64,000 bases of DNA, from NCBI GenBank assembly GCA_013115135.1, contig JABANP010000247.1, positions 1-64,000 of the forward strand, read 5' to 3'. Below, piece after piece: positions 30,350 to 62,869 of the stretch. Within the stretch, counting starts at the first letter, position 1. The number at the start of each line of letters is the position of its first letter. A program made the translations under genes and the position numbers. Origin of the DNA: Perkinsus olseni. Lineage: Eukaryota; Perkinsozoa; Perkinsida; Perkinsidae. The notes beneath the pieces were generated by a model. The model worked only from the letters and a program-made list of their open reading frames with translations. It was not told the DNA's origin and did no database searches.

Positions 30350-31640
30350 CCATATGTCTGCCTGAAGGCGGTCCTCTGCCGAGTATCTTTTATTTCGTCG
30401 TTAATGACGAGTAGTCTTCGCGGCTATAGTTGTGCGACAGCATGTAGTCTTCCCTTCATAATGGTTGTGATTATGTGTTGCTGTTGTGTTCATACACCAG
30501 TCGTAATCTTAACGTCATGGCGAGATAGGCGGCCATCAACTCCGTCTTGCTTCGGGCTCATCTCTGAATTATAGTCCACCAGGAGGATTTGCGGGCAACT
30601 GCTCACGTGAGGAGCCGTCTGGGTAATACTTAGATACCCTCTTGAATACCAGCGAACTCATCTCATCCAGCTTGGACTTCTGAGTGGTTCGTAGATTGAG
30701 CGAGCGGCGCACGCTTCGTGACCTCACTTTCTGACAGTATATGACGAACTACGGCTCAAGCACTCGTTCAAGATATGCAACGGAGCTCGACAGGCTGTCG
30801 ATGACAACCGATACTAGCGGTATCGGCCCAGTGGGACTGGTGCGACTCGCTCCAAGTGAGCTCCCGGGGCTGCCTTATATCGGAGTCATTGTTTTAGCCT
30901 GGTCTTATACGGCTTTCATCAACGAGTAGCCAACACTCTCAAATTAAGAGTCTCAACTGACTCCCTTGTACTGAATTTGTCGCGACTTCTCACGCGCTTC
31001 CGGTTGTTCCCAAGCTCGGCTTCGATAAACTCGCGACTAGAAACAACAGAGCAACAACAGTTGCACTGGGATCGCAAGTCATCGGCCCGATGACATCACG
31101 TTATTATCTTGCTATCTCTCATTCTTCTATTGGACAGTCGTGCAATTTGCGCGAGGCACGCCCACTGTGTGGGCGGATATCTTCAACGTCGTGATCGAAT
31201 CGTCGATTGATACTTTAGGTAGTCGATGTCAGTGACTCTGGTAACACAATCCGAAAGGCAATACAGATATCAGATAATACTTGAGCTGCTGTCGACGAGT
31301 TGGCAGTCGGGCCGATGACAATCCACAAAAGAATCCACGAAAGAGTCTAGATGCAATCGATCCTAAGGATCCGATCATCGGATCCTTCGACGCATACACA
31401 TACAAGCTGCGCTTAACACTCTCGCGCCCCGCCAATACTGTCTCCTTCGCACGTACGGGCCGCACAGTCAAAAAGTTAAAAGCAGCAAGGCCGAACGGAG
31501 CCGATTTACAAATAGCGAACAATTGATATCTCGCAGCTAGCACACTGGCCAACAGGAGAGGGCAGATCCTCCTACCACAACTGTGGGCGGCCTGCATTCC
31601 GTCTGGCCATCACACAGTACGCTGCTGGAATGCAGCGGCT
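30350..31640. other. No confident gene; two odd palindromes
   Basis: Intergenic-looking. Perfect palindromes with a 1-nt centre occur at 31078–31094 (17 nt) and 31365–31387 (23 nt). Confidence 0.35.
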
Positions 31641-31657
31641 GCAGCTGTTGCAGGTGA

Positions 31658-31914
31658 TCGTGCAGCACGATTCGTGCCTGTGACAGCAGTGCTACTTCTA
31701 AGAACGACTGGTGCTTGCCATATTACTAATATGATAGACAGTGGCTCGAAAATAGCGAAGTGCTTGAGAATCTCAAGCACTTCGCTATTTTCGATACGTT
31801 CGACGCTATCTCAAGTTAAGATAGCGTCGAAGGCATCGATGCAGAAGAGCCACGACGTCGCGCAAGAACTGAGCATTGCTCAGTGAGCAAAAAGCTTATA
31901 GCCATTTAATGGCT
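31658..31914. repeat. Cluster of single-base-centre palindromes
   Basis: In 260 bp I find perfect palindromes at 31658–31672 (15 nt), 31719–31733 (15), 31746–31794 (49, arms of 24), 31868–31884 (17) and 31900–31914 (15). There is also one with a single mismatch at 31799–31831 (33). Every one has exactly one unpaired central base. Confidence 0.85.
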
Positions 31915-32694
31915 GTCACTGTCGGTTAACTATTTGCGAGTCACAACGTGTGACCAACAACGATATCGAACTGGCAGCACAAGAGGCCATCCGAGATGCG
32001 TGAAGCTCCTGCGGCCGGCACGTCTGGGAGTTCGAATGGGGTCGGGGAAAGTTACTTCCCGCTCTGAATCAAATCGAATAATTCCATCAAATCATTTGGT
32101 GGGAAAGAGCACTGAACGGTGAGCAGATCATACCGACTACATGCATCAAGTTGCCAAGTATCAAGTGCCATCTTCTAACACTCCTATAGCTCTGTCTCTG
32201 ATGAAGCAAGTGGCTCTCTTGGATATAAGTCTCCTTCATAGCTTTTCTCTTCTCTCCTTCAGAAGGAGTCCTTCTCCGCTCTCTCGTTCTTTGCTCTCTT
32301 GGTCTGTCGCTGTAATCCAGGGAACACAATACCCAGATCTAGGAGAAGTGAATCTCAATAACGTATGAACAGATCAATGCTAAATCACTTTGAGCCTAGC
32401 AGAAGACAATCTCACAAACAATGGCGTGCGCGCCTGCGACCACGACAACAGTCGCTCTCCTCGGCCGTCGTTTTTGTCACAGGAGCCTGGCTATTGCAGC
32501 CTCACTAACTTCAATGCATACGCCGATTGAGCCAAGCTCCACCGACTTGTCTCACAGATACAGGGTAACGAAACTTGCGCTATAGAAGCAAGCAAGTAGA
32601 CGCAGCCACAGTGATGAGCAATTCGAGTTTTACGCTGGTTGCACTACCGGCATCGACGCTGCCGACAGTAGCAGCCCCCTGCATCCCCAGGTGA

Positions 32695-32715
32695 GGAATC
32701 CTCACTGAGGATTCC
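32695..32715. repeat. 21-nt palindrome, 1-nt centre
   Basis: GGAATCCTCA-c-TGAGGATTCC, perfect. Confidence 0.8.
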
Positions 32716-33054: not shown

Positions 33055-33075
33055 GTGACACGTTTAACGTGTCAC
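33055..33075. repeat. 21-nt palindrome, 1-nt centre
   Basis: GTGACACGTT-t-AACGTGTCAC, perfect. Confidence 0.8.
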
Positions 33076-33125
33076 GTTAACATCATTGACAGCATCGTGT
33101 AAACATCCACAACATCGCGTGAACA

Positions 33126-33890
33126 TCAAAAATCAAACGCTGAGGACGGATCATCATCGAGGTACAAACTCTCTGCCCGGGGGCTCCGCTTCAGGGCCTT
33201 CAAAGCTCTACCTTTCTTATCCTTAACGAACTTATACAGCCAACGCCTGTCCGACGCCTCGTATCCGGCAGGAGGAGTGTTTTCAATGTGGTCGAATAGG
33301 GATAAGCATTTGGACTTGTTCATATCGTAGTTCAGTTTTTCCGTGATTGCATCCATGAGGTGAGCGAACGGATTGTATTTGAAGAACTCCTTTTGGATCT
33401 CGTCATACGGCCCCTCGACGCTCGTTCCGACCATGTATTCCTGGCCTTCCGGGGCCTTCTTGCCTGTCATGTACTTGAGCGTCGCGTTCTTTTCCGGAGT
33501 CACACTGGAAACGACATCATAGCACACCGGAATCGTGTCACTGCCCGAGCGCGGTAGCAGACCATGAATAATATTCATCGAATATTACAAATAGTCCACC
33601 GTCGTATGGTGTCTACGGCTGTCAGCCGTGAGCGAAACGGAGTAACCTCCGTTATAAACCCTGTCTAAGGAGAGCGTGCCGCCATCATATTCCTTGTAGC
33701 AGCTCTTCTTGTCGAAGCTCATCTGGAAGCCCATCTGGAAAGACATAATATTGATGATAATGTGCCTTATTGCAATGCCATCGTTGCAAGTTATGCTCAT
33801 GATTACCTCAGGGTTCTTCTTAGACTTTCTGAACCACGAAGAGGCTATCCCAGGGGCAACCAACTGAACAGTGTAAGCGAATGGAGTCAT
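33126..33890 (-). CDS. Secreted-family paralogue A
   Basis: Three exons: 33890–33807 (28 codons, hydrophobic leader MTPFAYTVQLVAPG), 33734 or 33722–33589, and 33504–33126. The model gives about 202 residues (198 with the shorter exon 2). The exon layout (leader, ~45–65-residue middle exon, ~110–125-residue last exon, phases 0 and 2) is shared by all complete members of this cluster. Last-exon signature: EGP..EI, FF/KY.PFAH, PAGYE, RWL..FV. No known domain recognised. It is the most divergent member and lies outside the duplicated segment. Confidence 0.6.
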
Positions 33891-34511
33891 ACCGCAGGAG
33901 AGATCGTGCGGGGTCAACCTCATTTGGCCGGGGAAAGTGTGTTCGAGCGCGCATCATTCGCCCGTCCTCGTGATTGACCTCTTTAATCCTTCTGCGACCC
34001 TGATTTCATATTCGCTGTCCTCGCGAAGACAAAGCGAAGCCTCAGCTGTTGAGCTCGGCCTGATGTGCAGAGACTAACTGTAACATCTGCGTGCCTCTAC
34101 AGTATCACTCGATGTTATGTCGAGCCTTTGGAAAGCGAGTGAGCGGTTCCTCTCGTCGAATCGACGACGTCGATCTAACTCAAGTTCAGCTCTCGAACCC
34201 AGGTCCACCATTCGACTGCCAACCTTATTTCAGCCAAGGGTGCGATCGTGCATAGCGAATTGTCACGAGGGACATCCGTAATCGAGTGGGACTGCAGCTG
34301 TTAATGTCGCCACCGACTTTCTGAGTGTATTCGAGGCTTCGGAGAAGGCAGCGATTTTGAGAGTTCTCAGATGGACTCCGACCGGAGTACCACGATACCA
34401 CGTTTCCTGGGTAGCCTTCTTCGAGCTTTTCTCCGCTCGCTCCATTACTTTCCCCGGTCACTATTACCACTTGATCGACAACACGACTCCAGACAAACAC
34501 CACAACACACC

Positions 34512-34558
34512 CACGTTGTGAACACTGTGTCAGAGTCTGACACAGTGTTCACAACGTG
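34512..34558. repeat. 47-nt palindrome, 1-nt centre
   Basis: Perfect 23-bp arms (start CACGTTGTGAACACTG) around a single G at 34535. Confidence 0.9.
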
Positions 34559-34561
34559 ACA

Positions 34562-34584
34562 CTATGTCTGACAGTCAGACATAG
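34562..34584. repeat. 23-nt palindrome, 1-nt centre
   Basis: CTATGTCTGAC-a-GTCAGACATAG, perfect; 3 nt after the 47-nt palindrome. The pairing extends four more bases after one mismatch. Confidence 0.88.
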
Positions 34585-35569
34585 CGTCATCGACCTCGCA
34601 TCGAAATTTGGTGAATTAGTGACACACCAATTTGGTGTCACCAAATTTGGGTATCATGTAGCAGAGGCAGTCTCCGAGAGGCGGTGACCTCCATTGTTCA
34701 GCAGAACATGGGAGAGCTGCTCTACTCTATACGTTGATCTGGGCGAAGTCGGTAGTCCCCAGCATTCTACCTCCACTCCGCGAATGTTTCTGGGGGGGAT
34801 GCGCGATGTGGCGGAGGCAGCTCGCCACCAGCTCCGAGCAATGAGCTGCGTTGAGCCCGCGTCCGCCATTCACAACCATTACGTCTCATGGATGATAACC
34901 TCAGTGTCTGTTGCTAATGCTTTACTAGCTAGAACACCGAACACCGATGAAATACTGTAACCTCGATGATCCAGGCAATCACTTATAAACTTGTATGTGC
35001 GAGCATAGTCATTGCGAGATATGTTCGCCTGGGGCTATCCTCCTCCGTAGCATTGCTACCACTGCATCTTGGTTCGACGACCGTGCAAACCATTCTTCAT
35101 CAGGTAGACATAGAGGCTCGTCCCAGTTGAGAATAGGGCAATTGAAGTGCCGGAACTGCGGCGAATCCCGACAATTCAATTGTCACAATTGCGCGCGACG
35201 CGTGTTTGCTTTCTCTCTGGGAATGTAATCTGTTCGACGGGAATATCAAGTCAAATCTCCTTATTCGACCAAATGTAGTAATCATTCATTCTGAACACGA
35301 AGTAGCATTTGATTTGTTATTCCTGAGCCCGTCGAGAATTGCACATCTTTTCGCTTGTCTAGCTACACATGAGTTCCTCCAGGGAGCTAAGTGAGTAGGA
35401 GTTGCCGTGTACAACCACTTTCGAGCTGCTCCGACCGATCATGACGAGAAGCCGTCTGAGATCGAGTAACGCATTGAGTATCGAAGTATCACATCCCGTT
35501 TACTATCATATTGGATTGTGGCCCTTAGCATCCTTCGCGACAAGGTGCAACCGTTTGATATGTTCCCTG

Positions 35570-35592
35570 AGCTGAGCCCAGTGGGCTCAGCT
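35570..35592. repeat. 23-nt palindrome, 1-nt centre, absent in copy 2
   Basis: AGCTGAGCCCA-g-TGGGCTCAGCT. The paralogous site near 44688 lacks 14 nt and has no palindrome. Confidence 0.88.
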
Positions 35593-35675
35593 GTTCAACT
35601 CCAACAACACGACACTCATCAATGAACATCACAGCACATCAGCACCACATGAACATGATAAAGATGATAGTCCAC

Positions 35676-36427
35676 TCACGATGGATCTACCTCATCAAAA
35701 TACACAACTTCTCCTTCTTTGCCTAACTTCTGCCAAGCTTCCTTTTCATTGTCCTTCATGAACTTCTTCAACCAACCTCTACCCAAATTCTTATAGCCGG
35801 CGGGCTCGTTAGTTTCAACGAGATTGACCAGCCATGAGCATTGAGATCTATCCATACCGGCTTCAAATTTTTCTACTATTGTGTCTCCCACATGAGCGAA
35901 CGGGATGAGCTTAGAGTATTTCCTTTTGATTTCTTCAGCCGACCCCTCGACCCTCGCTCCCTTGATGTCACGCGAATACTGTAGCTGAACCGTTCCTTCG
36001 GGCTTCATCCTGAGAAAGAGCTGATGAGGAAAACCGCAGTGCGGCAAGCTTGCGGGCGATGAGTATCACCAATATGACATGGCCGTATATGAATGGCCCT
36101 TTTGGATAATGTATTGGACTGCATAGCCACCGATAGCCATACGGATCATGTGAAGCGACCCGTCAGAGGCCTCGCTTGAGCAACGATCCGCGTCAGCGTC
36201 GATCTGAGATATCACACTCCGATCGGTGATACTGTCCAGCTGCTACCTTCGAGCCGAAGTCTGCGGTGAGCCCCTGAGAATTCTTATGGTCAACCTGAAA
36301 ACCAAGTAGGTTGGATTGCACAAAATCTACACATTATAAAGAGTACCTCCGTCCTACTAGAATGGATGGCCGTCACCACCGAGACCAGGCTTGATGTGAA
36401 TAAAAAAACGTAAGCGAAGGCGGTCAT
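35676..36427 (-). CDS. Secreted-family paralogue C
   Basis: Exons 36427–36347 (27 codons, leader MTAFAYVFLFTSSLVSVVTA, a good signal peptide), 36239–36070 and 36009–35676 (stop). Introns are 107 and 60 nt, GT–AG, phases 0 and 2; predicted 194 residues. The last exon has the family signature: IKRKYSK, PFAHV, SQC.WLV, PAGY, GWLKKFMKDNE. Function unknown; secretion is inferred from the leader. Its duplicate is paralogue F at 44771–45538. Confidence 0.68.
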
Positions 36428-36693
36428 AGGGACGGCTCCGAAAAAACGAGTCTGCGACCGATAATGGCGGCCCCGCTGCCGAGAGGCAGTCGGATAATTC
36501 GCACGAACGCCGCAACGAGTACTAGCACTACTGTTAAAGCTGACGAGACAAGACGGAATTTCTGTAACGAGCAAATGGTTTCCTGGAAATTGAAGTCGAG
36601 CAAGTAGGGATCGCTTAGTTGGCAAGGGCGCAAGAATCCACGTGCAGGAGGACTCGCATGATACAGGACACATAGCTGTGCTAGCAAGGGCAC

Positions 36694-36968
36694 CACTGTC
36701 AGCCGTGAGTGAAACCGAATAACTTCCGTTATAAACTCTATTTGAGGAGAGCGTGCCGCCTGTATGACGTTTGTACCAGCTCTCATTATCGAAGTACATC
36801 TGGGAAGACATGATGATGATCATGATGCGTATTATTGCAATCATCCCAATGCAATGCCATGATTGCACATCAAGCTACCTCAGGGTGCCTTCCAGACTGC
36901 ATCCACGTTGTAGAGGCTAGCCCAGGCCCTGGGACAACCAACAGAACAGAGTGAGCGAATGGAGCCAT
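36694..36968 (-). pseudogene. Secreted-family paralogue B, truncated
   Basis: Leader exon 36968–36879 (MAPFAHSVLLVVPG…) and a middle exon 36799–36694 (…GGTLSSNRVYNGSYSVSLTADS) related to paralogue A. No matching last exon follows before paralogue C begins 270 bp further on, and the exon-2 phase differs from the family. Probably a gene remnant; a fused transcript with C is possible. Confidence 0.5.
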
Positions 36969-37472
36969 AACGCAGGAGAGATTGTGCGGGATCAACCTCT
37001 TTCGGGCGGGGGAAGTGTGTTCGAGCGCACATCATTCGCCCGTCCTCGTGAACGACGTCTTCCAGCCTTCCGCGATACAGATTCCTCATTCACTGACCTT
37101 CCGGAGACGAAGTGGAGGCTGTTCAGCTTGGCCTGTTCAGCAAAGACCAACTATGGCGCTCACGTGTTACTCCAGCCTGTGCTTGCTGGCAGCGAGCAGT
37201 TGGTGGCCACCATCGTTCAGCAGGACATGGGAAACTGCCCCTCTGGGTGGAGTCGGCGGTCTTCAGCGTCCTGACCCATCTCCCTGGAAGTAGAGGTGGG
37301 ATACGCGAGTCTTTCCCAGGATGGAGAAGACTGCATACGGGCAAGTCATGAACCATCCGCCTCGTCTCTTGCTTCTAGGCTAGAAGTTCTAGCGCACGCC
37401 GAATCCTAAGTGCGCGTTGTACTGAGGCACGTAGGGCGTGACGGCGTCGTAAAAAGACGGGGACCGAGCAAG

Positions 37473-37712
37473 AGGCGCATACAGGCTGTACACACCGCTA
37501 GAGAGCTACACAGCTACAGTAGCTAAAGGCTCATACAGGCTGTACACACCGCTAGAGGGCTACACAGCTAAAGTAGCTAAAGGCTCATACTAGGCTGTAT
37601 ACACCGCTAGAGGGCTACACAGCTACAGTAGCTAAAGGCTCATACTAGGCTGTATACACCGTTAGAGGGCTACACAGCTACAGTAGCTAAAGGCTCATAC
37701 TAGGCTGTATAT
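37473..37712. repeat. Minisatellite, 54–55-bp unit, ~4.4 copies
   Basis: Units start AGGCKCATAC at 37473, 37527, 37581 and 37636, with a partial unit at 37691. The duplicated segment has the same array with about 3.4 copies at 46474–46657. Confidence 0.85.
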
Positions 37713-37741
37713 ATAGCGGAGAGGGGGTCATAACTTATGAC

Positions 37742-37794
37742 CGTATGGGAGTACTTGTGACTCATAACTTATGAGTCATAAGTACTTCCATACG
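37742..37794. repeat. 53-nt near-perfect palindrome, 1-nt centre
   Basis: Arms of 26 with only two G·T mismatches around C37768. It is preceded directly by a perfect 15-nt palindrome GTCATAA-c-TTATGAC (37727–37741). The duplicate near 46687 is 14 nt shorter and lacks the palindrome tip. Confidence 0.85.
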
Positions 37795-38096
37795 CGTCGG
37801 TAATCATCTCACTGTGAAGTTTCACTGTGACAATCGAGCGAGGGGACGAAGAATGCGCTGCAAGATTGCCATAGAACTAGAAGGTAAATATTGCACTCTT
37901 CCCCGACAGGAAGTTCCCGCCTCGCGTTGACTATGAAAGGGGGAGAAACAACTGGCATCATCCCTTTCGCTGCTGCTTCTGTTATCTCATCTTATTGCCC
38001 AACTCCAACACCACACCATCGTTAATAAACATCACAACACATCGTCATCAGCACCACATGAACATGATAAAGATAACACTTAATCCATGATCAACC

Positions 38097-38874
38097 TCAG
38101 TCATCATAATACACTTTCTTTCCCTCTTTGCGCAGTTTTTCCATAGCTTCCTCCCTATTATTCTCCACGAACTGCTTCAGCCAACCTCTCCCCCATTCCT
38201 CGTAACCGGCGTCGGGCTTTGTCTCAATGTGATTGACCAACTCCAAGCATTGAGACTTATTCATACCGGCTTTGAATTTCTGTACGACTATATCTTCCAC
38301 ATGATCGAACGGGATGAACTTGGAGTATTTCCTTTTGATGTCTTCAATCGGCCCCTCGACCTCGTACCCCGACAGGGAAACCTTGTCTTCATGCCAATAC
38401 TCTAGCTCAGCCGTCCCCTCACGAGGTCCGCGCTCCATCCTAAGTTAAGATTCGGTGAGAGTTCTCAGGAACGCTCATCTCCCTCATCACTGAGTTACCA
38501 ATGATATTGCACGGACGATCCGGTGCCGTCTCCACGGAGAACGTACCGGATTGAATAATCACCCCCTCTCAAGGAGTACATGACTAGCGAGCCGTTGGCG
38601 CCATCGCTCGTGCAGGTATTCGATGCAGCGTAGATCTGAGAGATGACAATTCCATCGGCGATGTCGCCGCGTTGGCACCGTCGTAGTGGACTCTACCCCG
38701 GGGTCCGACATCTCGACAGACCCTTCAGAGCTTGGAGTGTCGGTCTGCAGAAAATTCGATGTGGACAGTCCACAATCAACACGTTATTGAAAGTACCTTG
38801 GCCCTACTAGAATGAATGGCCGCCACCGAGATGAGGCTTGATGTGAACAAAAAGACGTAAGCGAGGGGGTTCAT
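38097..38874 (-). CDS. Secreted-family paralogue D
   Basis: Exons 38874–38797 (26 codons, leader MNPLAYVFLFTSSLISVAA), 38692–38499 and 38439–38097; introns 104 and 59 nt; predicted 204 residues. The middle exon has NGSLVMY…GGDYSIRYVL; the last exon has EGPIEDIKRKYSKF, HVEDIVV, AGYEEWGRGWLKQFV. Phases agree throughout. Duplicate of paralogue G. Confidence 0.68.
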
Positions 38875-39297
38875 AGCAACGGCTCCGAGAAAACGAGTCT
38901 GCGACCGATAACGGCTTCCCTGATGTGCAGTGGCGGTCTAATAAATTGCACAACACTGCTGGGCTGATCTTATCTGACGTGCTAAAGCAACAAGTACTAG
39001 CAGTACTGTTATAGCTCACGAGATTTGCTCTCCGTTCAATAAACTAATTCTGAAACTCACGACCAACACCAGAATCGTTTATCACACGTAAAATGCTGGT
39101 CCAGAATCGTTCCTGAGTCTCTGAGTTTTTGCTTTGTCGAACACGCCCAAGACGGAAACTCGCGAAATGAGGAAATGCAGGTCGAGCAGGTAAGGCTCAC
39201 AGTGGACCGCCCACTCAGTTTAGGCAAGGGCGCAAGAGTCCACGTGCAAGACTTCATCTGTAGCTTACAAGAGCTCGAAGACTATTTCCACACCTCG

Positions 39298-39302
39298 ACT
39301 CT
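39298..39302 (+). other. Target-site duplication ACTCT (left)
   Basis: Repeated at 44030–44034. The unoccupied duplicate at about 48226–48240 reads GACTCTCGCAGG, confirming the insertion point. Confidence 0.9.
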
Positions 39303-39573
39303 AGTGGAGTGCAAAGTCTAGGCTAGTGAAGTATGTTCCACTTAAGCCATTTGGCCGCGTGGTTAACTTGTATACTTGCGAACCGAAAGACCCCGGGTTC
39401 AATCCCCAGGTCTGACTGATGCGCTATACTGTCTCCGGCTACAGCTGATAAAGCCAGTAATCGATCAAGCTAAATTAGCTGTAACACCATTGATTGTACT
39501 ACTGAAAGGGTTAACTCAGTAATCTAGAGATTTCTTATATTTCCTTATGTCCTCTCCCGCTTTGCGTTCAATT
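39303..39573 (+). repeat. 5' LTR, 271 bp
   Basis: Begins AGTGGAGTGC and ends GCGTTCAATT; the usual TG…CA ends are absent. Contains a tRNA-like segment and, unusually, the gag ATG (39547). Confidence 0.9.
39345..39417 (+). promoter_or_regulatory. tRNA-like segment with A and B boxes in LTR
   Basis: TGGCCGCGTGG (39352–39362) fits an A box and GGTTCAATCCC (39396–39406) a B box, at tRNA-like spacing. The acceptor stem is missing and only 4 of 5 T-stem pairs form, so it is not a tRNA gene. The 3' LTR copy is at 43801–43873 and differs by one base. Confidence 0.55.
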
Positions 39574-41085
39574 GGTGCCCAGACTCCTAGCTCTTCGAGT
39601 GAGAGTTCTGGTAGCGCGAGTGCACCTCGCGCACACCAACTTCGCCCTCTCTCTGATTTCTACAGTGAAGACGAAGATGACGTCAGAGACGTCAGCATTG
39701 ACCTCGATCACGATGATGACGAGGCATTGCTTCCACTGGACGATGAGTTCGCTCATCGCAGTGATAGTGAGTTGGATGATAGAGATCCTTCTCAACACAA
39801 GGTTGGTGATACCCCTCACCAAGAGGGTGGTACTCCTCCTCAGAAAGGTAAAGCGCCTGAAAAGCGTAAGGTGGTTTTGGATGATACCAAGCCATCGCCT
39901 CTAGCCGGGACTTCCAAAACTCGGCGGATGATCGAACTTCGTAAGAACGCCGTCAAGTTCAGCGGTGGTGCCGACGAAGATGTTGAAGAATGGTTGGACA
40001 AGCTGGATATGATTGCCGGTCCCGAAGGTTTTAACCTTGACTACTATGATCAGGCTGTGCTCCTTAAGTTATCGGTGTCTGGTCCGGCGTATCAGGCTGC
40101 CAAGATGGTCCCGTGTGAGCAGAAGTCCATCGATCCTTCCAGGAAGCGGTACTTGGCCCGGCTACGATCCGAACTACGAAAGCGGTTTGGTTCGAGCCCT
40201 GACAAGGCTGTTGCCAGCTTGAGAAGTGTCAGCTTCAACGACTACACATCGGTTGATGAGTATGCTACTGCCGTGAGTCGCCTAGTGCGACAGAGCTTCA
40301 GCAATATTCACAACAGATGCCAGGGTGAGATCATGAAGCTGTTCTTCTACAGTGGTCTACCACACGATCATCCAGCAAGCTCTGCCATCAAGCCGTTCTG
40401 CCTTGACCCTACCAAGTCTTATGAGCAAATCATTACTCGCGCGAGGCTGTCATTTGATAACCTCAGTCAACCGCGAGTAGCCGCACCTGGTGTGCGAAGA
40501 TTTGACTTTAAGTCTGGCAAGGGTGAGGGTGGTAAAGGCGGTAAAGGCAAGGGAAAGAGAAGCCGTGAAGGAGGCCAATCGGTGAAACGCTGTGAGTTTT
40601 GCAATAAGACCAATCACACGATTGAAACGTGTAGATTCCTTGCTAAAGCAAGAATGGCCTTGAAGGTAAGCAACCTCGGGAAGCGGTTTCATGTATTAAA
40701 TTCTCCGATGCCGCTGTTGCTTCAGACTGAGTATAATCTCATTTGCCTTGTCGATTCAGGATCAAGTGACTCAATCATAACTCGATCGGCATTAAGCAAG
40801 GTTGGTAGAGGTTGTAGTTCAGTTGAAGGTCACCAGGTTGCATTATCGACCATTAAAGGTCCTCAGTTGTGTACCAACGCAAAGATCCCTGCTACTGTGT
40901 TGAGTTGTAACAATGATATACGGAATACTATGCCTGTGTTAGTCGTTGATGCAGATCACATAGTACTCGTAGGTAACTATAGAGTTGATGTAATTCTAGG
41001 ATGCGATTGGATAGCGATGCACTCTCCTGTAGTATTCGAGAGCACGCATTACACTGAGCCCATAATAGCCGCTTCACCGGCATAA
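39547..41085 (+). CDS. Retrotransposon Gag + aspartic protease ORF
   Basis: 512 codons. Acidic, Ser-rich N-terminus, a gag-like helical middle, a basic Gly/Lys linker and a zinc knuckle CEFCNKTNHTIETC (CX2CX4HX4C), then the protease motif LVDSGSSDS. Ends at TAA, but the same frame stays open beyond it into reverse transcriptase. The first nine codons overlap the 5' LTR. Confidence 0.85.
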   Translation: MSSPALRSIGAQTPSSSSESSGSASAPRAHQLRPLSDFYSEDEDDVRDVSIDLDHDDDEALLPLDDEFAHRSDSELDDRDPSQHKVGDTPHQEGGTPPQKGKAPEKRKVVLDDTKPSPLAGTSKTRRMIELRKNAVKFSGGADEDVEEWLDKLDMIAGPEGFNLDYYDQAVLLKLSVSGPAYQAAKMVPCEQKSIDPSRKRYLARLRSELRKRFGSSPDKAVASLRSVSFNDYTSVDEYATAVSRLVRQSFSNIHNRCQGEIMKLFFYSGLPHDHPASSAIKPFCLDPTKSYEQIITRARLSFDNLSQPRVAAPGVRRFDFKSGKGEGGKGGKGKGKRSREGGQSVKRCEFCNKTNHTIETCRFLAKARMALKVSNLGKRFHVLNSPMPLLLQTEYNLICLVDSGSSDSIITRSALSKVGRGCSSVEGHQVALSTIKGPQLCTNAKIPATVLSCNNDIRNTMPVLVVDADHIVLVGNYRVDVILGCDWIAMHSPVVFESTHYTEPIIAASPA

Positions 41086-42519
41086 GCCTCTGGCGCAAAT
41101 TCTCAGATTAGAATAGATGAACAAACTGGGAATAGAATCACAGCTACTATTGATGAACCTGATTTCATTGCTCGTAGACTAACTGATGGTGATGGTAAAT
41201 CTGTTTGGCAAGTGGAATGGAAGTGGATTGATAATAAAGCTCCTCCAGGGGTATTCCGTCCTCCCACTTATGAAAAGCAGATGGAATCACTGAGTCAATC
41301 ACAGTTAGATACATGGCAGACGGAAATCAAGAAATGGGAATCCCAGGGCTTCATACAAGAAGTCAAAAGATCTGATTTGAAGGGAACGTTGACTTTAATG
41401 GGAGTCGCACAAGAACACAAAATCACAACTCCTTGCCGCCCTGTTATAGACTTCAAGCCTCTAAATAATCAGATCCATTCATATCCCAATTCGGATGACC
41501 ATGTTACCGTCGACGATACATTACGCCGATGGAGAGCGAACTATACACGTGATGGTAAATCGATAGATAGCTGGGTATTGATAGATATAAAGAAAGCATA
41601 CCTTTGCGTACGCATGAGCCCTAAATGCGCGGCATATCAAGGCCTCATCATAAAAGATGAGAAAGGATCAACAAGATACATGCGATTGGATCGCTTAGGA
41701 TTTGGCATTAATATTGCTCCAAAAGTACTGAGAAGTATCATAAGATATATTCTCTGCGAGGAAGGTCTCGAAAGCCGGATAGATATGTTCGTAGATGATA
41801 TGCGAGTACCAACTGAGCATGTAGATCAGTTGCGCGAAGCATTACATAGAAACGGGTTCCCAACGAAAGACCCAGAGAGCAGTAGCTCAGCACGGATTTT
41901 AGGATTACAAATGACTGGTGCGAATAGATGGAAACGACGAAGTGACATCCAGCCCATTGCTGGCTTCACCTATCGTGATCTTCGTTCGTGGGTGGCCACG
42001 ATAGCATCATCTCATTATCCTGTCCTAGGATGGCTCTCGCCAGCAGCCAGAGCGCTGGAGAGACTGAGTATTATTGCCAATCCGAGCGCAACTTCGCCCG
42101 ATCCTTTGCCTGATGATATTGTGACGAAAGCACATAAATTGTACTCAGACATTGTACTACGAGGAGATCCAGCTACTGGATTCTTCCGAGTAGATCCCTC
42201 GCAGCCATGGTTTTTGTACACAGATGCTTCGGCGGACGCAATCGGTGCATGCTTATATTTTGGGTCGCAATTAGTCGAAGATAAATCTTGGCTACGAGCC
42301 ACGAAAGACATTCGGCCTATCGATACAGTAGAGCTAGAAGCAGGCTTGAGAGGTCTGAACGACCTAACGGTTCCTTGGATAAGAGCCTTAGGAATTAAAA
42401 CTGGTCTTGCACTTACAGTGTATGTCGATAACAAGCCAGTCCTAGGCCAACTTTCTAGGGAAGAAACTCAGCCATTGGGTTGCATCCAAGGGTCTTGCAT
42501 CAGGTGCAGCGGAGGTTAG
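41086..42519 (+). CDS. Reverse transcriptase + RNase H ORF
   Basis: In frame with the gag/protease ORF after the TAA; first ATG at 41212. RT features include DIKKAYL, LGFGINIAPK and the catalytic box FVDDM. RNase H features are YTDASADAIGA, VELEAGL and VYVDNK. The frame runs out at 42519, a few dozen codons after RNase H, where the integrase frame (+1) takes over. Confidence 0.85.
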   Translation, partial: ASGANSQIRIDEQTGNRITATIDEPDFIARRLTDGDGKSVWQVEWKWIDNKAPPGVFRPPTYEKQMESLSQSQLDTWQTEIKKWESQGFIQEVKRSDLKGTLTLMGVAQEHKITTPCRPVIDFKPLNNQIHSYPNSDDHVTVDDTLRRWRANYTRDGKSIDSWVLIDIKKAYLCVRMSPKCAAYQGLIIKDEKGSTRYMRLDRLGFGINIAPKVLRSIIRYILCEEGLESRIDMFVDDMRVPTEHVDQLREALHRNGFPTKDPESSSSARILGLQMTGANRWKRRSDIQPIAGFTYRDLRSWVATIASSHYPVLGWLSPAARALERLSIIANPSATSPDPLPDDIVTKAHKLYSDIVLRGDPATGFFRVDPSQPWFLYTDASADAIGACLYFGSQLVEDKSWLRATKDIRPIDTVELEAGLRGLNDLTVPWIRALGIKTGLALTVYVDNKPVLGQLSREETQPLGCIQGSCIRCSGG

Positions 42520-42526
42520 GCTACAA

Positions 42527-43741
42527 ATGATAGACGACCTCGTACAGCTGTATAAAATAGACGTAACGTTCAGATACATAGCCAGTGGTGAGAACCCTGC
42601 GGATGAACGATCACGAATACCTGATTATCTAAAATGGCCCAAACCATCAAGGCGTGAGTTGAAAGCGAAGCCGGAGTCTCATACTTTAGCAGCAGCTACT
42701 CGTTCCCATGAATGGCAGGACGTGAGTACGTGTGAGAATGGCTATCTGATTATCCCACCTGGTCACGTGAAACAATTTGTAGAAGATAATCACGACCATG
42801 AAGGTGCAGAAGCTCTCTATCAAAGACTTCGCAAATGGGTAAAATCAGAACCAGGTTTCCGAGCAATATGCCGAGAGGTTGTTGCTCAGTGTGACGTTTG
42901 TAAACGTGCCAAGGCACATCCGAACCAGAACACGGATGGACTAGATCCTGAGACAGAAAAGAAGAGGAAACGTGATGACGTTGAAAAACGTGCAACACGC
43001 AAGTCTTTCATTCCATTCAATAAAGTCCATATTGATGTAGTCGGAAACTACAGAGTTGTTTCTGGTAAGAAGTCATTCTTCGTCGTCACACTAGTGGATA
43101 GTGCCACTGGATATGCTCTGGGCAAGGCCACGAAATCGGTGCCCGTGGGTGAAGACATAGAGGTTCTATTGAGCCATATGTTAGAGACCTTTCACACAAC
43201 CCCTTTGGTTGTCTGGTCTGACTCCGGTGCGAATCTGGTTTCGAAACGAGTTGAGGCATTTCTGTTGAAACATGATATTTTACATTACACGACTGCGAAG
43301 AATACTTCTCTGAGTAATGGAAAAGTAGAAAGGTTTCATAGAACACTCAACGTGTACCTCCGTACTCATGCCTCCCACGATGAAATTGGCTGGCCTGAAT
43401 TCACCAGACTAGTCAAAAAGGGAGTGACGAAGTATAATACAACCCCTTACCATGGCGTGTCTGCGCATGAGAAGGTATTTAGGTTTTCACCTAACTGTGA
43501 ACCTTACCGTCCAGTGCAGTCACGCGACGAGTGGGATGAACTTTGTCATGAAAACAAAGAAGAATGGGGACGAGGACTGGAACCCGGTACTTGTGTATTT
43601 TACCGGAATCCCAGACCGTCGAATAAACTCTCCGATCGCTGGTTGGATGCAGTGATTGAAGAACGAGTTGGCCCCAAGGCGTACAAGCTAGAAGGCCTGC
43701 CCGGCAAGTTCGACTTGAAGGATATTAAGCTGCTTAAGTGA
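42527..43741 (+). CDS. Integrase ORF
   Basis: 404 codons from the first ATG; the frame is open from about 42480. It has an HHCC-like zinc-binding region ending CDVCKRAK, then the DDE core (HIDVVG, VWSDSGANLVS, NGKVERFHR) and a C-terminal DRWLDAVIEERVGPKAYKL segment. Stop at 43739–43741, just before the purine tract. Confidence 0.88.
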   Translation: MIDDLVQLYKIDVTFRYIASGENPADERSRIPDYLKWPKPSRRELKAKPESHTLAAATRSHEWQDVSTCENGYLIIPPGHVKQFVEDNHDHEGAEALYQRLRKWVKSEPGFRAICREVVAQCDVCKRAKAHPNQNTDGLDPETEKKRKRDDVEKRATRKSFIPFNKVHIDVVGNYRVVSGKKSFFVVTLVDSATGYALGKATKSVPVGEDIEVLLSHMLETFHTTPLVVWSDSGANLVSKRVEAFLLKHDILHYTTAKNTSLSNGKVERFHRTLNVYLRTHASHDEIGWPEFTRLVKKGVTKYNTTPYHGVSAHEKVFRFSPNCEPYRPVQSRDEWDELCHENKEEWGRGLEPGTCVFYRNPRPSNKLSDRWLDAVIEERVGPKAYKLEGLPGKFDLKDIKLLK

Positions 43742-43758
43742 AGAGAGAGAAGGGGACG
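43741..43758 (+). promoter_or_regulatory. Polypurine tract
   Basis: AAGAGAGAGAAGGGGACG, immediately upstream of the 3' LTR. Confidence 0.75.
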
Positions 43759-44029
43759 AGTGGAGTGCAAAGTCTAGGCTAGTGAAGTATGTTCCACTTA
43801 AGCCATTTGGCCGCGTGGTTAACTTGTATACTTACGAACCGAAAGACCCCGGGTTCAATCCCCAGGTCTGACTGATGCGCTATACTGTCTCCGGCTACAG
43901 CTGATAAAGCCAGTAATCGATCAAGCTAAATTAGCTGTAACACCATTGATTGTACTACTGAAAGGGTTAACTCAGTAATCTAGAGATTTCTTATATTTCC
44001 TTATGTTCTCTCCCGCTTTGCGTTCAATT
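43759..44029 (+). repeat. 3' LTR, 271 bp
   Basis: Two differences from the 5' LTR, one in the tRNA-like segment (TTGCG versus TTACG) and one in the second codon after the ATG. Followed by ACTCT. Confidence 0.9.
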
Positions 44030-44327: not shown

Positions 44328-44770
44328 GTCGACGGGAACATCAAGTGAAATCTCCCCTAAATGAGCGGCCCTTATTTTCACTCATCCCACCAATTGTAGG
44401 AAACATTCATTCTGAAAAGAAAGTGGCATTCGATTTGTTATTCCCGTCGAGAATTGAACTTCTCTTCACTCGTATAGCTACACCTGAGTTCCTTCAAGGA
44501 GCTAAGTTAGTAGAAGTTGCCGCGTACAACCACTTTCGAGCTGCTCCGACGGGGCATGACGAGAAGCCATCGAGTGATGGTATTGAGTATCGAAGTATCA
44601 CATTCCGCCTACTATCAAATTGGATTGTGGTCATGATCACCCCTCACGACAAGGTGCAACCGTTTGATATGTTCTCTGAGGTCAGCTGTTCAACTCCAAC
44701 AACACGACATTCGTCAATGAACATCACAGCACATCAGCACCACATGAACTTGATAAAGATAATACGCAAC

Positions 44771-47802: not shown

Positions 47803-49033
47803 AGCAACGGCTCCGAGAAAACGAGTCTGCGACCGATAACGGCTTCCCTGATGTGCAGTGGCGGTCTAATAAATTGCACACCACTGCTGGGCTGATCTTA
47901 TCTGACGTGCTAAAGCAACAAGTACTAGCAGTACTGTTATAGCTCACGAGACTTGCCCTCCGTTCAATAAACTAATTCTGAAACTCACGACCAACACCAG
48001 AATCGTTTATCACACGTAAAATGCTGGTCCAGAATCGTTCGTGAGCCTCTGAGTTTTTGCTTTGTCGAACACGCTCAGGACGGAAACTCCCGAAATGAGG
48101 AAATGCAGGTCGAGCAGGTAAGGCCCACAGTGGACCGCCCACTCAGTCTAGGCAAGGGCGCAAGAGTCCACGTGCAAGACTTCATCTGTAGCTTACAAGA
48201 GCTCGAAGACGATTTCCGCACTTTGACTCTCGCAGGTTTGGGGTTTGTAAGTTGAACCTCGCGACTCTTGAGGTCTGACAGGCCCGGCTTCGGGTTCGGG
48301 CTGCAGGCCGAAGGGAGTCGGCGCTTCCCATTGTTCCCTGCGGTCCGAAGCGGTACGCTAGGGGTGCGTTTTAGTTGTCGTGTCAGCTGTCACTCTCGCC
48401 ACGCGAAACAGTGTGATATTGTGTACTGCTAGGCATGAGTGACCCATTATTGAAGTGTTGTTGTGTGATTGTGAAGAGTAGTTGAAATTTTACTCACTGA
48501 GCCCACGAATTGTACTGTTAAACCCAAACACGACACTACTGTATCTTTAACAAACACCACATCACATTAGGCTGATGCACACATCACATGAAGACGATGA
48601 AGAGCTTACAAGCGTCCTGAACTCAGGATCAACCTTCCTCATCACGTAGCACAGCTTCGCCATGTTTGCGCAACTTCTTCACTGCTTTCTTCACGAACTT
48701 CTCCTTCACAAACATCCGAAGCCAGTTTCTGCCGAATTTCTCGTATCCCGCGGGATGCGTCTCAATGTGGTCGTTCAACCATGAGCATTGAGTATCATTC
48801 ATACCAGATTCGAAGCCCTGTATGATTCTGTCGGCAACGTGAGCGAAGGGAATGAACTCAGAGAATTTGCTTCTGATCTCCTGAGAGGGTCCCTCGATTT
48901 TCGCTCCCTTCTTGCCACGCAAGTACTCAAGCTCAACCATCTTCTTGGATTTCATCCCAAGGAAGAGACGCAATAGACGTAGGAGGCGCAGTTTGCGGAT
49001 ACCACCAGTATATGACGGATGTGGGTTTTGCTC

Positions 49034-49036: not shown

Positions 49037-49371
49037 GGGCCTATTTCAAAAGTCTCCTTAAAGAGGATTTCTTGAAGTTCTTAAGCGCGAAACGGCTGGA
49101 TTTTTGTTAATCCGAGTTCAAAAGGCCGCCTTAATAACCTAAAGAAGGCTTACTTCATCCATCTGCTTCCTACGGGCTAAGAAGCACTCCTTTAAGAATG
49201 CTTCATGAGGCAAAAATCACCCGAAAAACCCCTCAAGAAGCTCAAGAAGCTTTAACTCGTTTCAAAAGACGATCTTTCTCGAGCCTTGCAGCTCAAGAAG
49301 CTTAACCTCCTCGAGAGGAGGTTATGGGGGGATTTTCCGGCCTTCGCGGCGAAATTTAGACATCGCGACGC

Positions 49372-51461: not shown

Positions 51462-52473
51462 TTCAAGGATCTATTCCGCTTAAGAAGCTCAGGAAGGCTT
51501 CTTGAGGTATAAGAAGTTCGCTTCTAAGAAGGAAAAACTTTTGAGACAGGCTATGCATCTTAAACAAGTTATTGTAAGAAGTTCTTATACTTCAAGAAGT
51601 GCTTCCTTAAGGAGACTTTTGAAATAGGCCCCAGGAGCTGTGTATTGAACTGAGTAACCACCACCATAATTTCGCTGACGCATCTTGAGCGTGCTGGAAT
51701 CGGAGGAAGTCACCAAGCAATTGTCGGCATTAGTAATCATCATAAGTACACGATTCTCATTCTGAGGTCGCGACTTCGAGGCGAGGAAAGGCATCAGCTT
51801 TTTAGTAGCCATCTCGAGTCCTTCAGGATGAATGTCGCCTGCTGGACGCGTCATCTGAAGGGAGCCGTCACGATGGATCATCCGCGATGAACTCATTATG
51901 GCGAGTACCTTGGCCCAGCCAGATTGCAAGGCCGTCACCGCCGAGATGAGGTTCGCGAGTAATAGTAGAACGACGTGAGGGAAGAGACCCATAGTGACTG
52001 CTTTGCAAGAGCGAAGCTGCGATCGATCGCAGCTTCTGTGTATTGGCATCTTACGCGTTCGACTCGTCGGTCGCTTCAGAGACGTTCGCCCTTGGCTGTC
52101 TCCAAGGAATACTGGGGACAAGGAACACAGCAGAGAGGGTCCTTGTCGCGGACTGCGATTTCTGCAAAATCAGGAATCATTTCGCCCACACCCTCAAGGC
52201 AGTTCTCGATCCGAGCTGCTCTGTAAAAGCTGACTCTAGCAATGCTGTCAAAAGTGACGAGGAGTTTCGGCGTAGAAAGGGACGTATACCCGAGCCGCGT
52301 GGCACGGCTGGCAAAGTAGCTCCTGATAGTAATAATTTCTCAGGTAGTACCGGCCAGTGGCTGGCAGCTAGTACGACCCGCACCGACTGGGACAAGCTAC
52401 TCATAAAATTCACAATTGCCCGGCTGGCACAGGACCGGTCGGACGTAATAAACTCCTAGAGTAGCAATGATAC

Positions 52474-52567
52474 GTTTGTCACGTCTAACTTAGACGTGAT
52501 AAACCTCCCATTGCCTATGCTTAGACCGTCTAAGGGCAGGCGAGCATAAGCGACGCTTATTAAGCGT
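52474..52567. repeat. Cluster of odd palindromes
   Basis: 31 nt at 52474–52504 (one G·T mismatch), 15 nt at 52520–52534, and two overlapping 15-nt palindromes at 52546–52560 and 52553–52567. All have a single central base. Confidence 0.8.
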
Positions 52568-55792: not shown

Positions 55793-55820
55793 TGTAACCA
55801 CACCAAAGTTCTTCTCGCAG

Positions 55821-59215: not shown

Positions 59216-59221
59216 TCACAC

Positions 59222-60035: not shown

Positions 60036-60354
60036 GCTGACTCACCGCTCCTGGCGCTTCATGTCAAAGAGCTCCAACGACCTCGCATGCATCACGTGCT
60101 GCCACAGCTTGGACCAGCCCTCCAGCACGTGCAAGCCCAGAGGTCGAGAGTCAACCTCATGCGTGCCTAGTGGGAACGACGAGCTGGTCGGGCTCGTAAT
60201 CCTGAAGGCTCCCATGTCCTCAACCGCGAGACCAAGCTTCTCGATAGCTCGGAACGATCATAGGTGATCAGCGCGAATCAGAAACCGTTGATGAACATCA
60301 GAATAGAATTTTCGCGGGCAACGAGCATACTGGTATAGACAACCGAATGAAATT

Positions 60355-60560
60355 TAATAACTGAGAGCCTCTCTAATGTCCTCGAAACACAACATGAATG
60401 GGTCGGGGAGAGTGTAAGAGTGTCGAATGAAAAACTGGAAGAGCTGTCGATGGAAGATGAGCTGTGGAAGACAGGGAGTTTCCTTGGACACTCGGGAGCC
60501 TGTCAGGCTCAGCCTGATTGCCGCCCACCAGTCGCGTTCTCGAAAGTAGGAGAATTGCAC
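60355..60560 (-). CDS. Terminal exon of an unidentified gene
   Basis: An open minus-strand segment (RDWWAAIRLSL…FFIRHSYTLPDPFMLCFEDIREALSY) ending at TAA. Composition looks coding. No domain recognised. Confidence 0.35.
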
Positions 60561-61814
60561 GAGATGAATCACATTCGGCCATCGTAGAATCATCTACTCA
60601 AACTCGGCTACTCTCTCTTATTCGACCCACAAGACGGTATCTTGATCTAGCTATGTGATCCGACTTGCTATACCGAGTTCATACCATTCCGGAAAGTACT
60701 AACATCTGATACCAGGTTAACTGATATCAGATAACAGTTTCTTCTATATCTACTTGCCGCATACTGGGCAGTAGTACAATTTGTTCCTCCATGTGATGAT
60801 CTTCGAGACTGCGGCTGGGGCGCTCTCCAAGTTCTACCCGTACAAAGCTAAGAAGCTCGCGATCCTTCCTTGGTAATAACATGGCGCTTGGCACGTGATA
60901 TTCCTCAGTCGAGCGTACATGAGCACCGAGCTCGGAGCACGGTGCCAAAATGGCATTCTCATGCAAGCTGTATGATCGTGATCATAGATCAACGGGCGCG
61001 TCGCCCGCCAGCATAACATCCTCAAGATAGCATCGTGACTGCCGCTCCTACAGCGTAGCCTCCCTCGGCAAACTTGATTCGAGTTCGCTCGGCGATCCCC
61101 GTTTCTGAGTCACTCGAAAGCAGGTACCGTCGACGGCGTCGAGCGTATCACTTTCTCCCGTCAGACTATTGAGCTGAGCCCACGCATTCGACAAACACGT
61201 GACATCTAACTGCATATGTTCAAAGTGCCATACATCGTGCGCGGTCCTCCGGGACAGTCCCTAGCCATCGGGTTGCCGCAATCCACGGCAACGTGACCTC
61301 GCACCACGTGGAGAAGCGTGACCACGTCATCACGTCGTATGCATGTTCGGCGAGTATAAGCTTGACCCAGTCAAGACAGCAACGTCCTTTCAGCATCCTC
61401 AAGCAAAGATATCTGCGGGCTTGAACCTTCTGCATGCCAGCCTTGCTAGCTGGGTAGAGGCTGTACGAGCTCTCAGGCTGCAGATACTGTATAGCAAAAT
61501 GGAAAAGAAGTGACCGGAGTTGATCGTAAATGGCAGCGCACGCAGATGTTGAGCTGCAAAGGCGGTAGGCTATCGAACTCAATGGAGTTTAGTTTCTTCG
61601 ACCGAGATTATTCTGGACCTTCTTACCTGCACGACCGCCTCTTCAGGGTAAAGGTGGTAGTTGTCTCTCAGACTAGCCCGTAGCGCAGTCCTCATTTCGC
61701 GCTGAGTAAGCAAGTCACCCGGCATAACCTGAGGGGAAATTCACAAACGCTATCATTGACCTACCGATACAGTTTAAATTAGACCCCACTCGAATAGAGT
61801 CATCCACGACTCGC

Positions 61815-62869
61815 TCACCAAGAGCATAGGTAATGTAAATTTTTCAAGTGGTCACAATTTTCAAAGTCCCCCGCATTTGTCGATAGAATTCTCATTTTCA
61901 CAGCCTCCCAACCTCCTCGGCCCACCTCTTTCAGAGTTCGGATCATCCTTGCGTAGGCCTGCTGGACACGCGGTGAGAAGAGCATTCGACCAACGGCCAT
62001 CACGATTGCCAAAACAATCCTTGAACATTCGCCAGCTGTCCATGCAACAAGAATGTGACGTAAAAACTCGACAAAACATAAATTATGCAGAAACGTTAAG
62101 TGAGTATTAAAGGAGACAACCAATTCAACCACTCATCAAGAAGAGTGGTGTCCTTCCGAGAGGCGCTACAGGACGGAGTCGTCAGCATCGTGGCCAGCTC
62201 AGGGTCGTAGGAATGGGCCAAACGGTCCAGCACACGGTGCCTGACACGATGAGAAACTGCAGTCCACGAGGACGGCTGGTTACTAGGTATAATAGACACC
62301 GCATACACGGGAACCAAGCCGAGCGGAGACGATTGAGTTACTCAATTGACTACTCAATTTGAGTAGTCAAGAGACACGTCTTATCTATTCAAATAGATAC
62401 AGTCAAATCTACGAGGCTTTTACAGTTAGAGCGGACTCAGCTCTTCACAGGTGAAAGTTACTCATAACCCATCGTACAGTCGGCAGAGGCGACCATTCAT
62501 GTTTTAGACAGGGGCAAAGACATTTACTCGGGCCTACTTCATCTCAGCTGCGGCCAGCTCTTCCAACGGCGACATCGGCTCTTCTATCAGCTTATGCAAA
62601 GGCTCGAGAGATATCGTCAACTGGATTGACTTTGGAAGGTGCACGAGATGGATCTGATATCATGGAGAGTTGGCAAACGGACGGGACAACAATGACGGTT
62701 CATCCCGCCAAGCCTTACGGCCGGTTTCAAAATTTTCAAATTGCATAACTTGCATAACTGAACTAAATAAAAATATCCTAGAAAGACCCGACAGGCCGCA
62801 GAACACGGCCGAGATCGCGACCAAGAACGCGCAGATACAAAGCGCCTTTCTTGCGAGAGTAGTAACCAT
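61815..62869 (-). CDS. Exons of a signal-anchored protein, unidentified
   Basis: First exon from ATG 62869: MVTTLARKALCICAFLVAISA, a signal anchor. A probable second exon about 62660–62532 encodes LHKLIEEPMSPLEELAAAEM before a GTAGGCC donor. Further open segments at 62317–62110 (LDRLAHSYDPEL) and 62050–61830 (VAWTAGECSRIVLA, AYARMIRTLKEVG) look like later exons. Not all junctions could be fixed; possibly a secretory-pathway enzyme, but no motif identifies it. Confidence 0.35.
62333..62370. repeat. Two abutting odd palindromes (13 and 25 nt)
   Basis: TTGAGT-t-ACTCAA at 62333–62345 directly followed by TTGACTACTCAA-t-TTGAGTAGTCAA at 62346–62370. Confidence 0.85.

What the first reader, a model, noticed from the sequence alone, without database searches (positions are those of the whole stretch)
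31078..62370. Excess of perfect palindromes with exactly one central base
Perfect odd palindromes with arms of at least 10 bp occur at 31365, 31746, 32695, 33055, 34512, 34562, 35570 and 62346; by chance about 0.06 are expected in 64 kb. Arms reach 23–24 bp. Many shorter or slightly mismatched ones lie beside them (31658, 31719, 31799, 31868, 31900, 37727, 37742, 52474–52567). I noticed no even-centred palindrome with arms of 10 or more. A process that copies back across one base (template switching at a nick, hairpin-primed synthesis, or a palindromic mobile element) would explain the fixed centre.
Basis: partly seen in the sequence, partly recalled or inferred. Interest (0 to 1): 0.88.

Follow-up and report, generated by a model that had tools for sequence, protein, structure and literature searches.

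The report
Thousands of stereotyped transposon-excision scars
The odd palindromes in this marine parasite's DNA look like repair scars left where cut-and-paste transposons jumped out, very often in the same 22-letter form, so the genome seems to keep a readable record of past jumps.

Summary
The window is Perkinsus olseni. The spacer-1 excess is real: 10 perfect palindromes with arms >=10 against a mean of 0.02 in 60 shuffles, and it recurs in 19 other stretches of the genome.

Most fit one larger motif: an 8-bp target x-T6-y becomes x-T6-[inverted 8-mer]-T6-y (22 bp, net +14). It occurs 76 times perfectly in 322 kb (about 0.001 expected), 0 times with a core of 5 or 7. The centre base obeys a complement rule in 146 of 227 palindromes; other base rules fit 5-15. 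The 8-mers favour nTnnnnAn. Homologous copies, and 16 of 16 LTR copies, lack particular insertions.

Best explanation: excision footprints of hAT transposons, whose flanks are closed into hairpins with a 1-nt offset, opened away from the tip and rejoined through the inverted 8-bp target duplication. hAT genes and an 8-bp-TSD MITE are present. No site with the element still in place was found.

The chemistry is known; the dominant +14 product and its extrapolated ~13,000 copies appear new.

The parts
31358..31387 (.). Scar inside a solo LTR, target CGATCCTT, 22-bp net insertion; holds the palindrome 31365-31387
   Evidence: 16 of 16 other LTR copies aligned lack the 22 bp; parse into target, left and right inverted bases done by eye
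31657..31678 (.). 22-bp scar with one mismatch, target ATCGTGCC
31746..31831 (.). Long two-sided scar, target CTTGAGAT: left palindrome 31746-31794 (arms 24, centre 31770), right palindrome 31799-31831 (arms 16 with one mismatch, centre 31815), 4 bp between
   Evidence: homologous C374 has a single CTTGAGAT
31869..31890 (.). Perfect 22-bp scar, target CTGAGCAA
   Evidence: C374 reads CTAAGCAAAAAGC here without it (read by eye)
32254..32275 (.). Perfect 22-bp scar, target CTCCTTCT
32691..32712 (.). Perfect 22-bp scar, target GTGAGGAT; holds the centre of palindrome 32695-32715
33055..33079 (.). Perfect 22-bp scar 33058-33079, target ACACGTTA; palindrome 33055-33075
34153..34174 (.). Perfect 22-bp scar, target TCGTCGAT
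34512..34584 (.). Long two-sided scar, target TGTCAGAC: palindromes 34512-34558 (arms 23, centre 34535) and 34562-34584 (arms 11, centre 34573)
34624..34645 (.). Perfect 22-bp scar, target ACACCAAA
35170..35191 (.). Perfect 22-bp scar, target GACAATTG
35570..35592 (.). Odd palindrome, arms 11, private 14-bp insertion that does not parse exactly into the 8-bp structure
   Evidence: 14 bp absent from C374 and from the window's own copy at 44.7 kb; 2 mismatches to the structure; not explained by the exact rule
37372..37393 (.). Perfect 22-bp scar, target CTTCTAGC, also perfect in C374 (L026:2534)
37727..37782 (.). Older two-sided scar (target GTCATAAG) shared with 46.7 kb and C374, carrying a newer perfect 22-bp scar 37761-37782 (target CTCATAAG) that only this copy has
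52479..52534 (.). One-sided scar: palindrome 52479-52499 (centre 52489), second core copy at 52528-52533
52546..52567 (.). Perfect 22-bp scar, target ATAAGCGT
60496..60517 (.). Perfect 22-bp scar, target GAGCCTGA
62332..62370 (.). Two-sided scar, target ATTGAGTA, with longer right arm; holds palindrome 62346-62370 (arms 12, centre 62358)
23819..23840 (.).
24027..24048 (.).

Best explanation
The palindromes are repair footprints of cut-and-paste transposons of the hAT superfamily. A hAT element inserts with an 8-bp target duplication (x-T6-y). On excision each flank loses one nucleotide on one strand and is closed into a hairpin whose tip is the complement of the base that lay next to the element; this gives the one-base centre. 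A host nuclease opens each hairpin some nucleotides away from the tip, leaving 3' overhangs. The overhangs contain y'T6'x' and its exact complement, anneal over 8 nt and are joined, giving x-T6-[y'T6'x']-T6-y, net +14 bp. When the joint forms elsewhere, longer one- or two-sided palindromes remain. Shown here: the 8-bp structure, the centre rule, insertions private to one copy, hAT genes and an 8-bp-TSD MITE. Inferred: that a transposase made the breaks, on which strand the hairpins open, and that annealing is the joining step.
For: 76 perfect 22-bp structures in 322,267 bases with a 6-bp core, 0 with core 5 or 7, 1 with core 8, 2 with core 4; none in 100 kb of E. coli or 322 kb of random sequence. 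Centre = complement of the base beyond the second core copy in 146 of 227 palindromes, other rules 11, 5 and 15; the same rule is described for Ac/Ds footprints (PMC5873905, passages). Target bias nTnnnnAn: 58 of 150 half-sites T at 2 or A at 7, P 5.5e-5; 14 of 75 full matches against 4.4 expected, as stated for Hermes (PMC10368747, passages). Private 14-bp insertions against two homologous copies at 37758 and 35570 and a private 22-bp insertion against 16 of 16 LTR copies. hAT dimerisation domain at 21 places, one 666-aa open frame with it, a 128-bp element with 8-bp TSD. 1 of 77 scars lies in open frames of 200 aa or more, about 10 expected.
Against: No site was found with an element in one copy and a scar in another (limited search). 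In the sampled sequence one element with a convincing 8-bp TSD was found against 76 perfect scars. 11 of 26 spacer-1 palindromes with arms >=9 in the 19 stretches and 3 of 11 in the window fail the exact rule, among them the longest (L023, arms 31 and 20). 35570 does not parse. Short inverted joints, the usual hAT outcome in the papers seen, show no clear excess here: at gap 2, 10 of 186 core pairs against 2 of 86 in one shuffle, near the 1 in 16 expected. Arms of 24-31 exceed the 20 nt cited for yeast.
Confidence: 0.85

Rival explanations
1. The scars come from another cut-and-paste superfamily with 8-bp duplications and a hairpin intermediate, such as Mutator-like, Merlin or P elements.
For: MULE domains match at 38 places, 32 over the cut-off. 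Merlin has 8- or 9-bp duplications and relatives in Perkinsus marinus (PMC8101967, passages).
Against: The centre rule and the nTnnnnAn bias are those reported for hAT. No 9-bp unit (core 7) was seen. Dada, known from P. marinus, has 6-7 bp duplications (PMC3706591, passages), which does not account for the outer complement bases.
Confidence: 0.09
2. Replication or break repair switched template to the opposite strand and back, without a transposon.
For: Such events give inverted copies beside their source, and a switch at one base pair would give a one-base centre. A few long palindromes here have no recognisable target duplication.
Against: Switching has no reason to use 8 bp each time (76 perfect at core 6, 0 at 5 and 7) or to prefer nTnnnnAn.
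Confidence: 0.03
3. A domesticated hAT-like transposase cuts host DNA with an 8-bp stagger and closes the ends into hairpins without carrying an element, so the scars mark a host process.
For: Perfect scars far outnumber the 8-bp-TSD elements that I could find. A domesticated hAT that makes hairpins (Kat1) is named in a reference title seen.
Against: Duplication of the target normally needs an insertion. Targets are diverse and scars are scarce in long open frames (1 of 77, about 10 expected), as for scattered insertions under selection.
Confidence: 0.03

Closest known systems
Ac/Ds (hAT) excision footprints with P-nucleotides in yeast, Candida and plants
   Same: Palindromic insertions centred on the complement of the base next to the element; 8-bp target duplication; microhomology at most joints in yeast and Arabidopsis (PMC5873905, passages).
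   Different: There many different footprints with mostly short inverted parts (28 types among 128 in Candida). Here one product, the complete inverted 8-mer with net +14, stands out, and it is seen genome-wide as fossils.
Hermes and TcBuster target duplications
   Same: 8 bp; the nTnnnnAn bias of Hermes (PMC10368747, passages).
   Different: Not the nnnTAnnn of TcBuster (PMC3499496, passages): 4 of 75 here against 4.4 expected. The bias here is weak.
V(D)J hairpin opening with P-nucleotides
   Same: Hairpins on DNA ends opened off-centre leave short inverted copies (recalled, and likened to hAT in the literature; not tested).
   Different: No RAG-like element was looked for; the target duplication here points to transposon insertion.
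Amoebophrya introner elements
   Same: Direct plus inverted repeats spread through the genome of a related alveolate parasite (PMC7789003, passages).
   Different: Those are introns with 3-5 nt direct repeats and 8-20 nt inverted repeats at their two ends; here there is no interior and the direct repeat is 6 bp of an 8-bp target.

Membership tests
hAT excision footprint | Target duplication of 8 bp | tested here: met
   Core 6 plus one inverted base each side: 76 perfect; core 5 or 7: 0; core 8: 1
hAT excision footprint | Inverted flank copies centred on the complement of the base next to the element | tested here: met
   146 of 227 against 11, 5 and 15 for other base rules
hAT excision footprint | Target bias nTnnnnAn (Hermes type) | tested here: met
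   58 of 150 half-sites, P 5.5e-5; other positions also vary, e.g. T 22 of 150 at position 1 and C 52 of 150 at position 3
hAT excision footprint | hAT transposase in the same genome | tested here: met
   21 matches to Dimer_Tnp_hAT; 666-aa open frame with DUF4371 and the hAT domain; activity not tested
hAT excision footprint | Element with the matching 8-bp duplication at the same site in another allele or copy | tested here: inconclusive
   None seen in the copies aligned or by match coordinates; strains were not available
hAT excision footprint | Covalently closed hairpin intermediate | not testable with these tools
   Needs biochemistry
Template-switch mutation | Variable length and spacing of the inverted copy | tested here: not met
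   Fixed 8-bp unit
Palindromic mobile element (one repeated palindrome) | Copies share sequence | tested here: not met
   The 76 target 8-mers listed are diverse; the 49-bp and 47-bp palindromes matched only their own other strand (40 of 140 candidates scored)

The most novel reading that the evidence does not exclude
P. olseni resolves hAT excision hairpins by one preferred route (opening at least 8 nt from the tip, then annealing of the inverted target duplication), which writes a fixed +14 scar. With an extrapolated ~13,000 perfect scars that outnumber the resident elements found, the genome is a countable and datable record of excisions by elements that are themselves largely gone.
Probability: 0.6. 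Interest if true: 0.75.

Novelty: new variant of a known kind. Interest (0 to 1): 0.62.

Why it matters
In the experimental papers seen, hAT scars are short and varied, so past excisions are hard to count. Here a strict 22-bp grammar lets scars be found without knowing the element. Excision rate, target preference, selection against frameshifts and hairpin repair in a relative of dinoflagellates then become measurable from assemblies alone. The dominant product also suggests that hairpin opening and joining in this lineage differ from those in yeast, plants and human cells.

Tried and rejected
Template switching: set aside because of the fixed 8-bp unit. Palindromic element family: set aside because the targets are diverse. 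RNA family: nothing at gathering thresholds in window 9000-64000. Chain events, scar upon scar, looked likely at 37727-37782 and in C374, but spacing within loci shows no excess at <=50 bp (9 observed, 7.2 expected); at <=400 bp there is a mild one (67 against 47.4, maximum 61 in 300 simulations). Loss of non-homologous end joining as the reason for the single product: one short Ku match (E 4.7e-5) and one DRMBL (SNM1/Pso2-type) match (E 6e-16) were found, so no claim is made. The 415-bp repeat 31168-31583, called a MITE in my note, reads as a solo LTR: TG...CA ends and pairs about 9-10 kb apart on several contigs. Element-filled alleles sought by match coordinates with L018, L009 and L024: no clear case. 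Solved structures for the hAT open frame: no match. A MITE copy on C164 has an odd palindrome at its left end, but its right flank is hard to read, so it is not used as evidence.

Print status: the searches (open-licence PMC papers only; listings seen, passages read in six papers) showed no report of such scars in Perkinsus or of a genome-wide +14 class. Subscription journals could not be searched.
Full report
WHERE. The window lies in a 61.48-Mb genome, contig C165. A protein encoded at 33126-33578 matches four predicted Perkinsus olseni proteins at 80-99% identity over 82-83% of its length, so the source is P. olseni, a protist parasite of molluscs.

OBSERVATION. I counted perfect inverted repeats by spacer 0-20. 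With arms >=10 there are 10 at spacer 1, one at spacer 0 (52013-52036), one at spacer 2 (49303-49324) and one each at spacers 5, 7 and 8. In window 9101-64000, 60 dinucleotide shuffles give a mean of 0.02 and a maximum of 1 at spacer 1. Nineteen further 10-kb stretches, chosen only by contig number, give 26 at spacer 1 with arms >=9 and 0-3 at each other spacer from 0 to 10; 100 kb of E. coli gives 2 at spacer 1 and 0-3 elsewhere. The excess at exactly one central base is real and genome-wide. The remark that there are no even-centred palindromes is wrong, but those are rare.

WHAT THE PALINDROMES ARE PARTS OF. Contig C374 is a diverged homologue of much of window 26218-48932, and 35260-39302 is largely repeated at 44381-48230. 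Aligning these copies shows 37758 as an insertion of exactly 14 bp in one copy of three, and 35570 likewise. C374 has a 28-bp insertion, made of two adjoining units, that the window lacks. Read closely, a 14-bp insertion turns an 8-bp target x-T6-y into x-T6-[y'T6'x']-T6-y: the inverted 8-mer between two direct 6-mers. Scanning 322,267 bases for this structure gave 76 perfect cases with a 6-bp core, 0 with 5, 0 with 7, 1 with 8 and 2 with 4; the chance expectation for core 6 is about 0.001 (4 to the power -14 per position). With no or two inverted outer bases there were none at core 5 and above. With up to two mismatches core 6 gave 166, core 5 gave 32 and core 7 none; random sequence of the same length gave 3 at core 6. 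Neither E. coli (100 kb) nor random sequence gave a perfect case at core 6. The sample contains related copies, but 76 scars remain after removing repeats with the same flanks (one more locus included).

LONGER FORMS. Some sites keep longer inverted flanks on one or both sides. 31746-31831 has left arms of 24 and right arms of 16 (one mismatch) around target CTTGAGAT; 34512-34584 has 23 and 11 around TGTCAGAC; 62332-62370 has 8 and 13 matched inverted bases around ATTGAGTA; 37727-37782 holds an older two-sided scar shared with the copy at 46.7 kb and with C374, and a newer 14-bp scar on top of it. The palindrome at 31365 lies in a solo LTR; the 22-bp insertion that holds it is absent from 16 of 16 other LTR copies aligned, and by eye it reads as target CGATCCTT with partial inverted flanks. 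By the exact rule (same 6-bp core, next base the complement of the centre, within 150 bp) 8 of 11 window palindromes with arms >=9 are explained and 15 of 26 in the 19 stretches, against 452 of 20,000 random positions. Of the three window misses, 31746 has a later change in one core copy, 31365 parses with its relatives, and 35570 stays unexplained. The longest palindromes elsewhere, arms 31 and 20 in L023, are among the unexplained.

THE CENTRE BASE. For 227 spacer-1 palindromes with arms >=7 in the window and 20 loci, the base beyond the second copy of the 6-bp core is the complement of the centre in 146; the same base fits 11, the transition 5 and the other transversion 15. So the centre is not free: it is the flank's own base pair, turned over.

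MECHANISM. hAT transposases close the flanking DNA into hairpins. [quoted passage not shown] That is the centre rule found here. hAT elements make 8-bp duplications, with nTnnnnAn for Hermes (PMC10368747, passages) and nnnTAnnn for TcBuster (PMC3499496, passages). The 8-mers of 75 scars favour T at 2 and A at 7 (58 of 150 half-sites, P 5.5e-5) and avoid G at 2 and C at 7 (17 of 150, P 7.6e-6); nTnnnnAn occurs 14 times against 4.4 expected and nnnTAnnn 4 times against 4.4; positions 1 and 3 show weaker biases. If both hairpins are opened on the strand that leaves 3' overhangs, at least 8 nt from the tip, the two overhangs carry y'T6'x' and its exact complement; annealing them yields the +14 product. 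This step is inference. Short inverted joints with both cores intact show no clear excess (gap 2: 10 of 186 core pairs; one shuffle 2 of 86; 1 in 16 expected), while gap 8 has 71. Scars with a deleted core would escape this test.

ELEMENTS. The hAT dimerisation domain matches at 21 places in the genome; one 666-aa open frame carries it together with DUF4371. A scan for exact 8-bp duplications with near-perfect 12-bp terminal repeats gave six hits, five of them inside one long inverted repeat with palindromic 8-mers; the sixth is a 128-bp element in C374 with ends CAGGGATCAATTCAGGC and duplication CGTCCATC. A longer relative in C396 is flanked by ATGATGAT, a low-complexity repeat. That end sequence has 15 matches with up to one mismatch in the genome. 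MULE domains match at 38 places, so another superfamily remains a rival. I found no site with an element in one copy and a scar in another.

NUMBERS. The 19 unselected stretches hold 40 perfect scars in 190 kb, about 210 per Mb, or roughly 13,000 in 61.48 Mb if they are typical; density runs from 0 to 9 per 10 kb. In 326,468 bases, 164 scars with up to two mismatches were kept after merging overlaps, 114 with at most one mismatch and 77 perfect, so ages are probably mixed. One of 77 lies in open frames of 200 aa or more, which cover 13.2% of that sequence, about 10 expected. A perfect scar in a dispersed repeat (L018:6977) is absent from the four fetched copies that cover the place (read by eye).

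JUDGEMENT. The chemistry of such scars is known. What appears new is the dominance of one product and the number. Four tested features of hAT footprints are met; the direct proof, an element-filled allele, is missing.

Noticed in passing
45-8978: Tandem array of 60 predicted tRNA genes (59 called tRNA-Ser) in 150-bp units; the anticodon alternates between AGA, TGA and CGA in roughly equal shares, with one GGA and one odd call.
   Followed up: no
39303-44029: Retrotransposon with reverse transcriptase and integrase frames between two 271-bp direct repeats that are 99% identical, so probably a recent LTR insertion.
   Followed up: no
31168-31583: Solo LTR with more than 30 relatives in the genome, absent from C374; short duplication ACTG at its ends.
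   Followed up: partly
35260-39302 and 44381-48230: Segmental duplication, 88-96% identical, also present on contig C374.
   Followed up: partly
37473-37711 and 46474-46656: Minisatellites with 55- and 54-bp units and different copy numbers in the duplicated segments.
   Followed up: no
33126-33578, 35676-36047, 38097-38438: Related minus-strand reading frames of a protein family; the first matches only P. olseni proteins of unknown function among 4 hits.
   Followed up: no
L009:7191-7744: 554-bp repeat with at least 39 copies at 91-100% identity, holding one of the 22-bp structures inside it, perhaps shared by its copies.
   Followed up: partly
L055 (C164): MITE copy with an odd palindrome directly at its left end, possibly a one-ended excision attempt.
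   Followed up: partly
52013-52036: Even-centred perfect palindrome with arms of 12, not explained by the scar structure.
   Followed up: no
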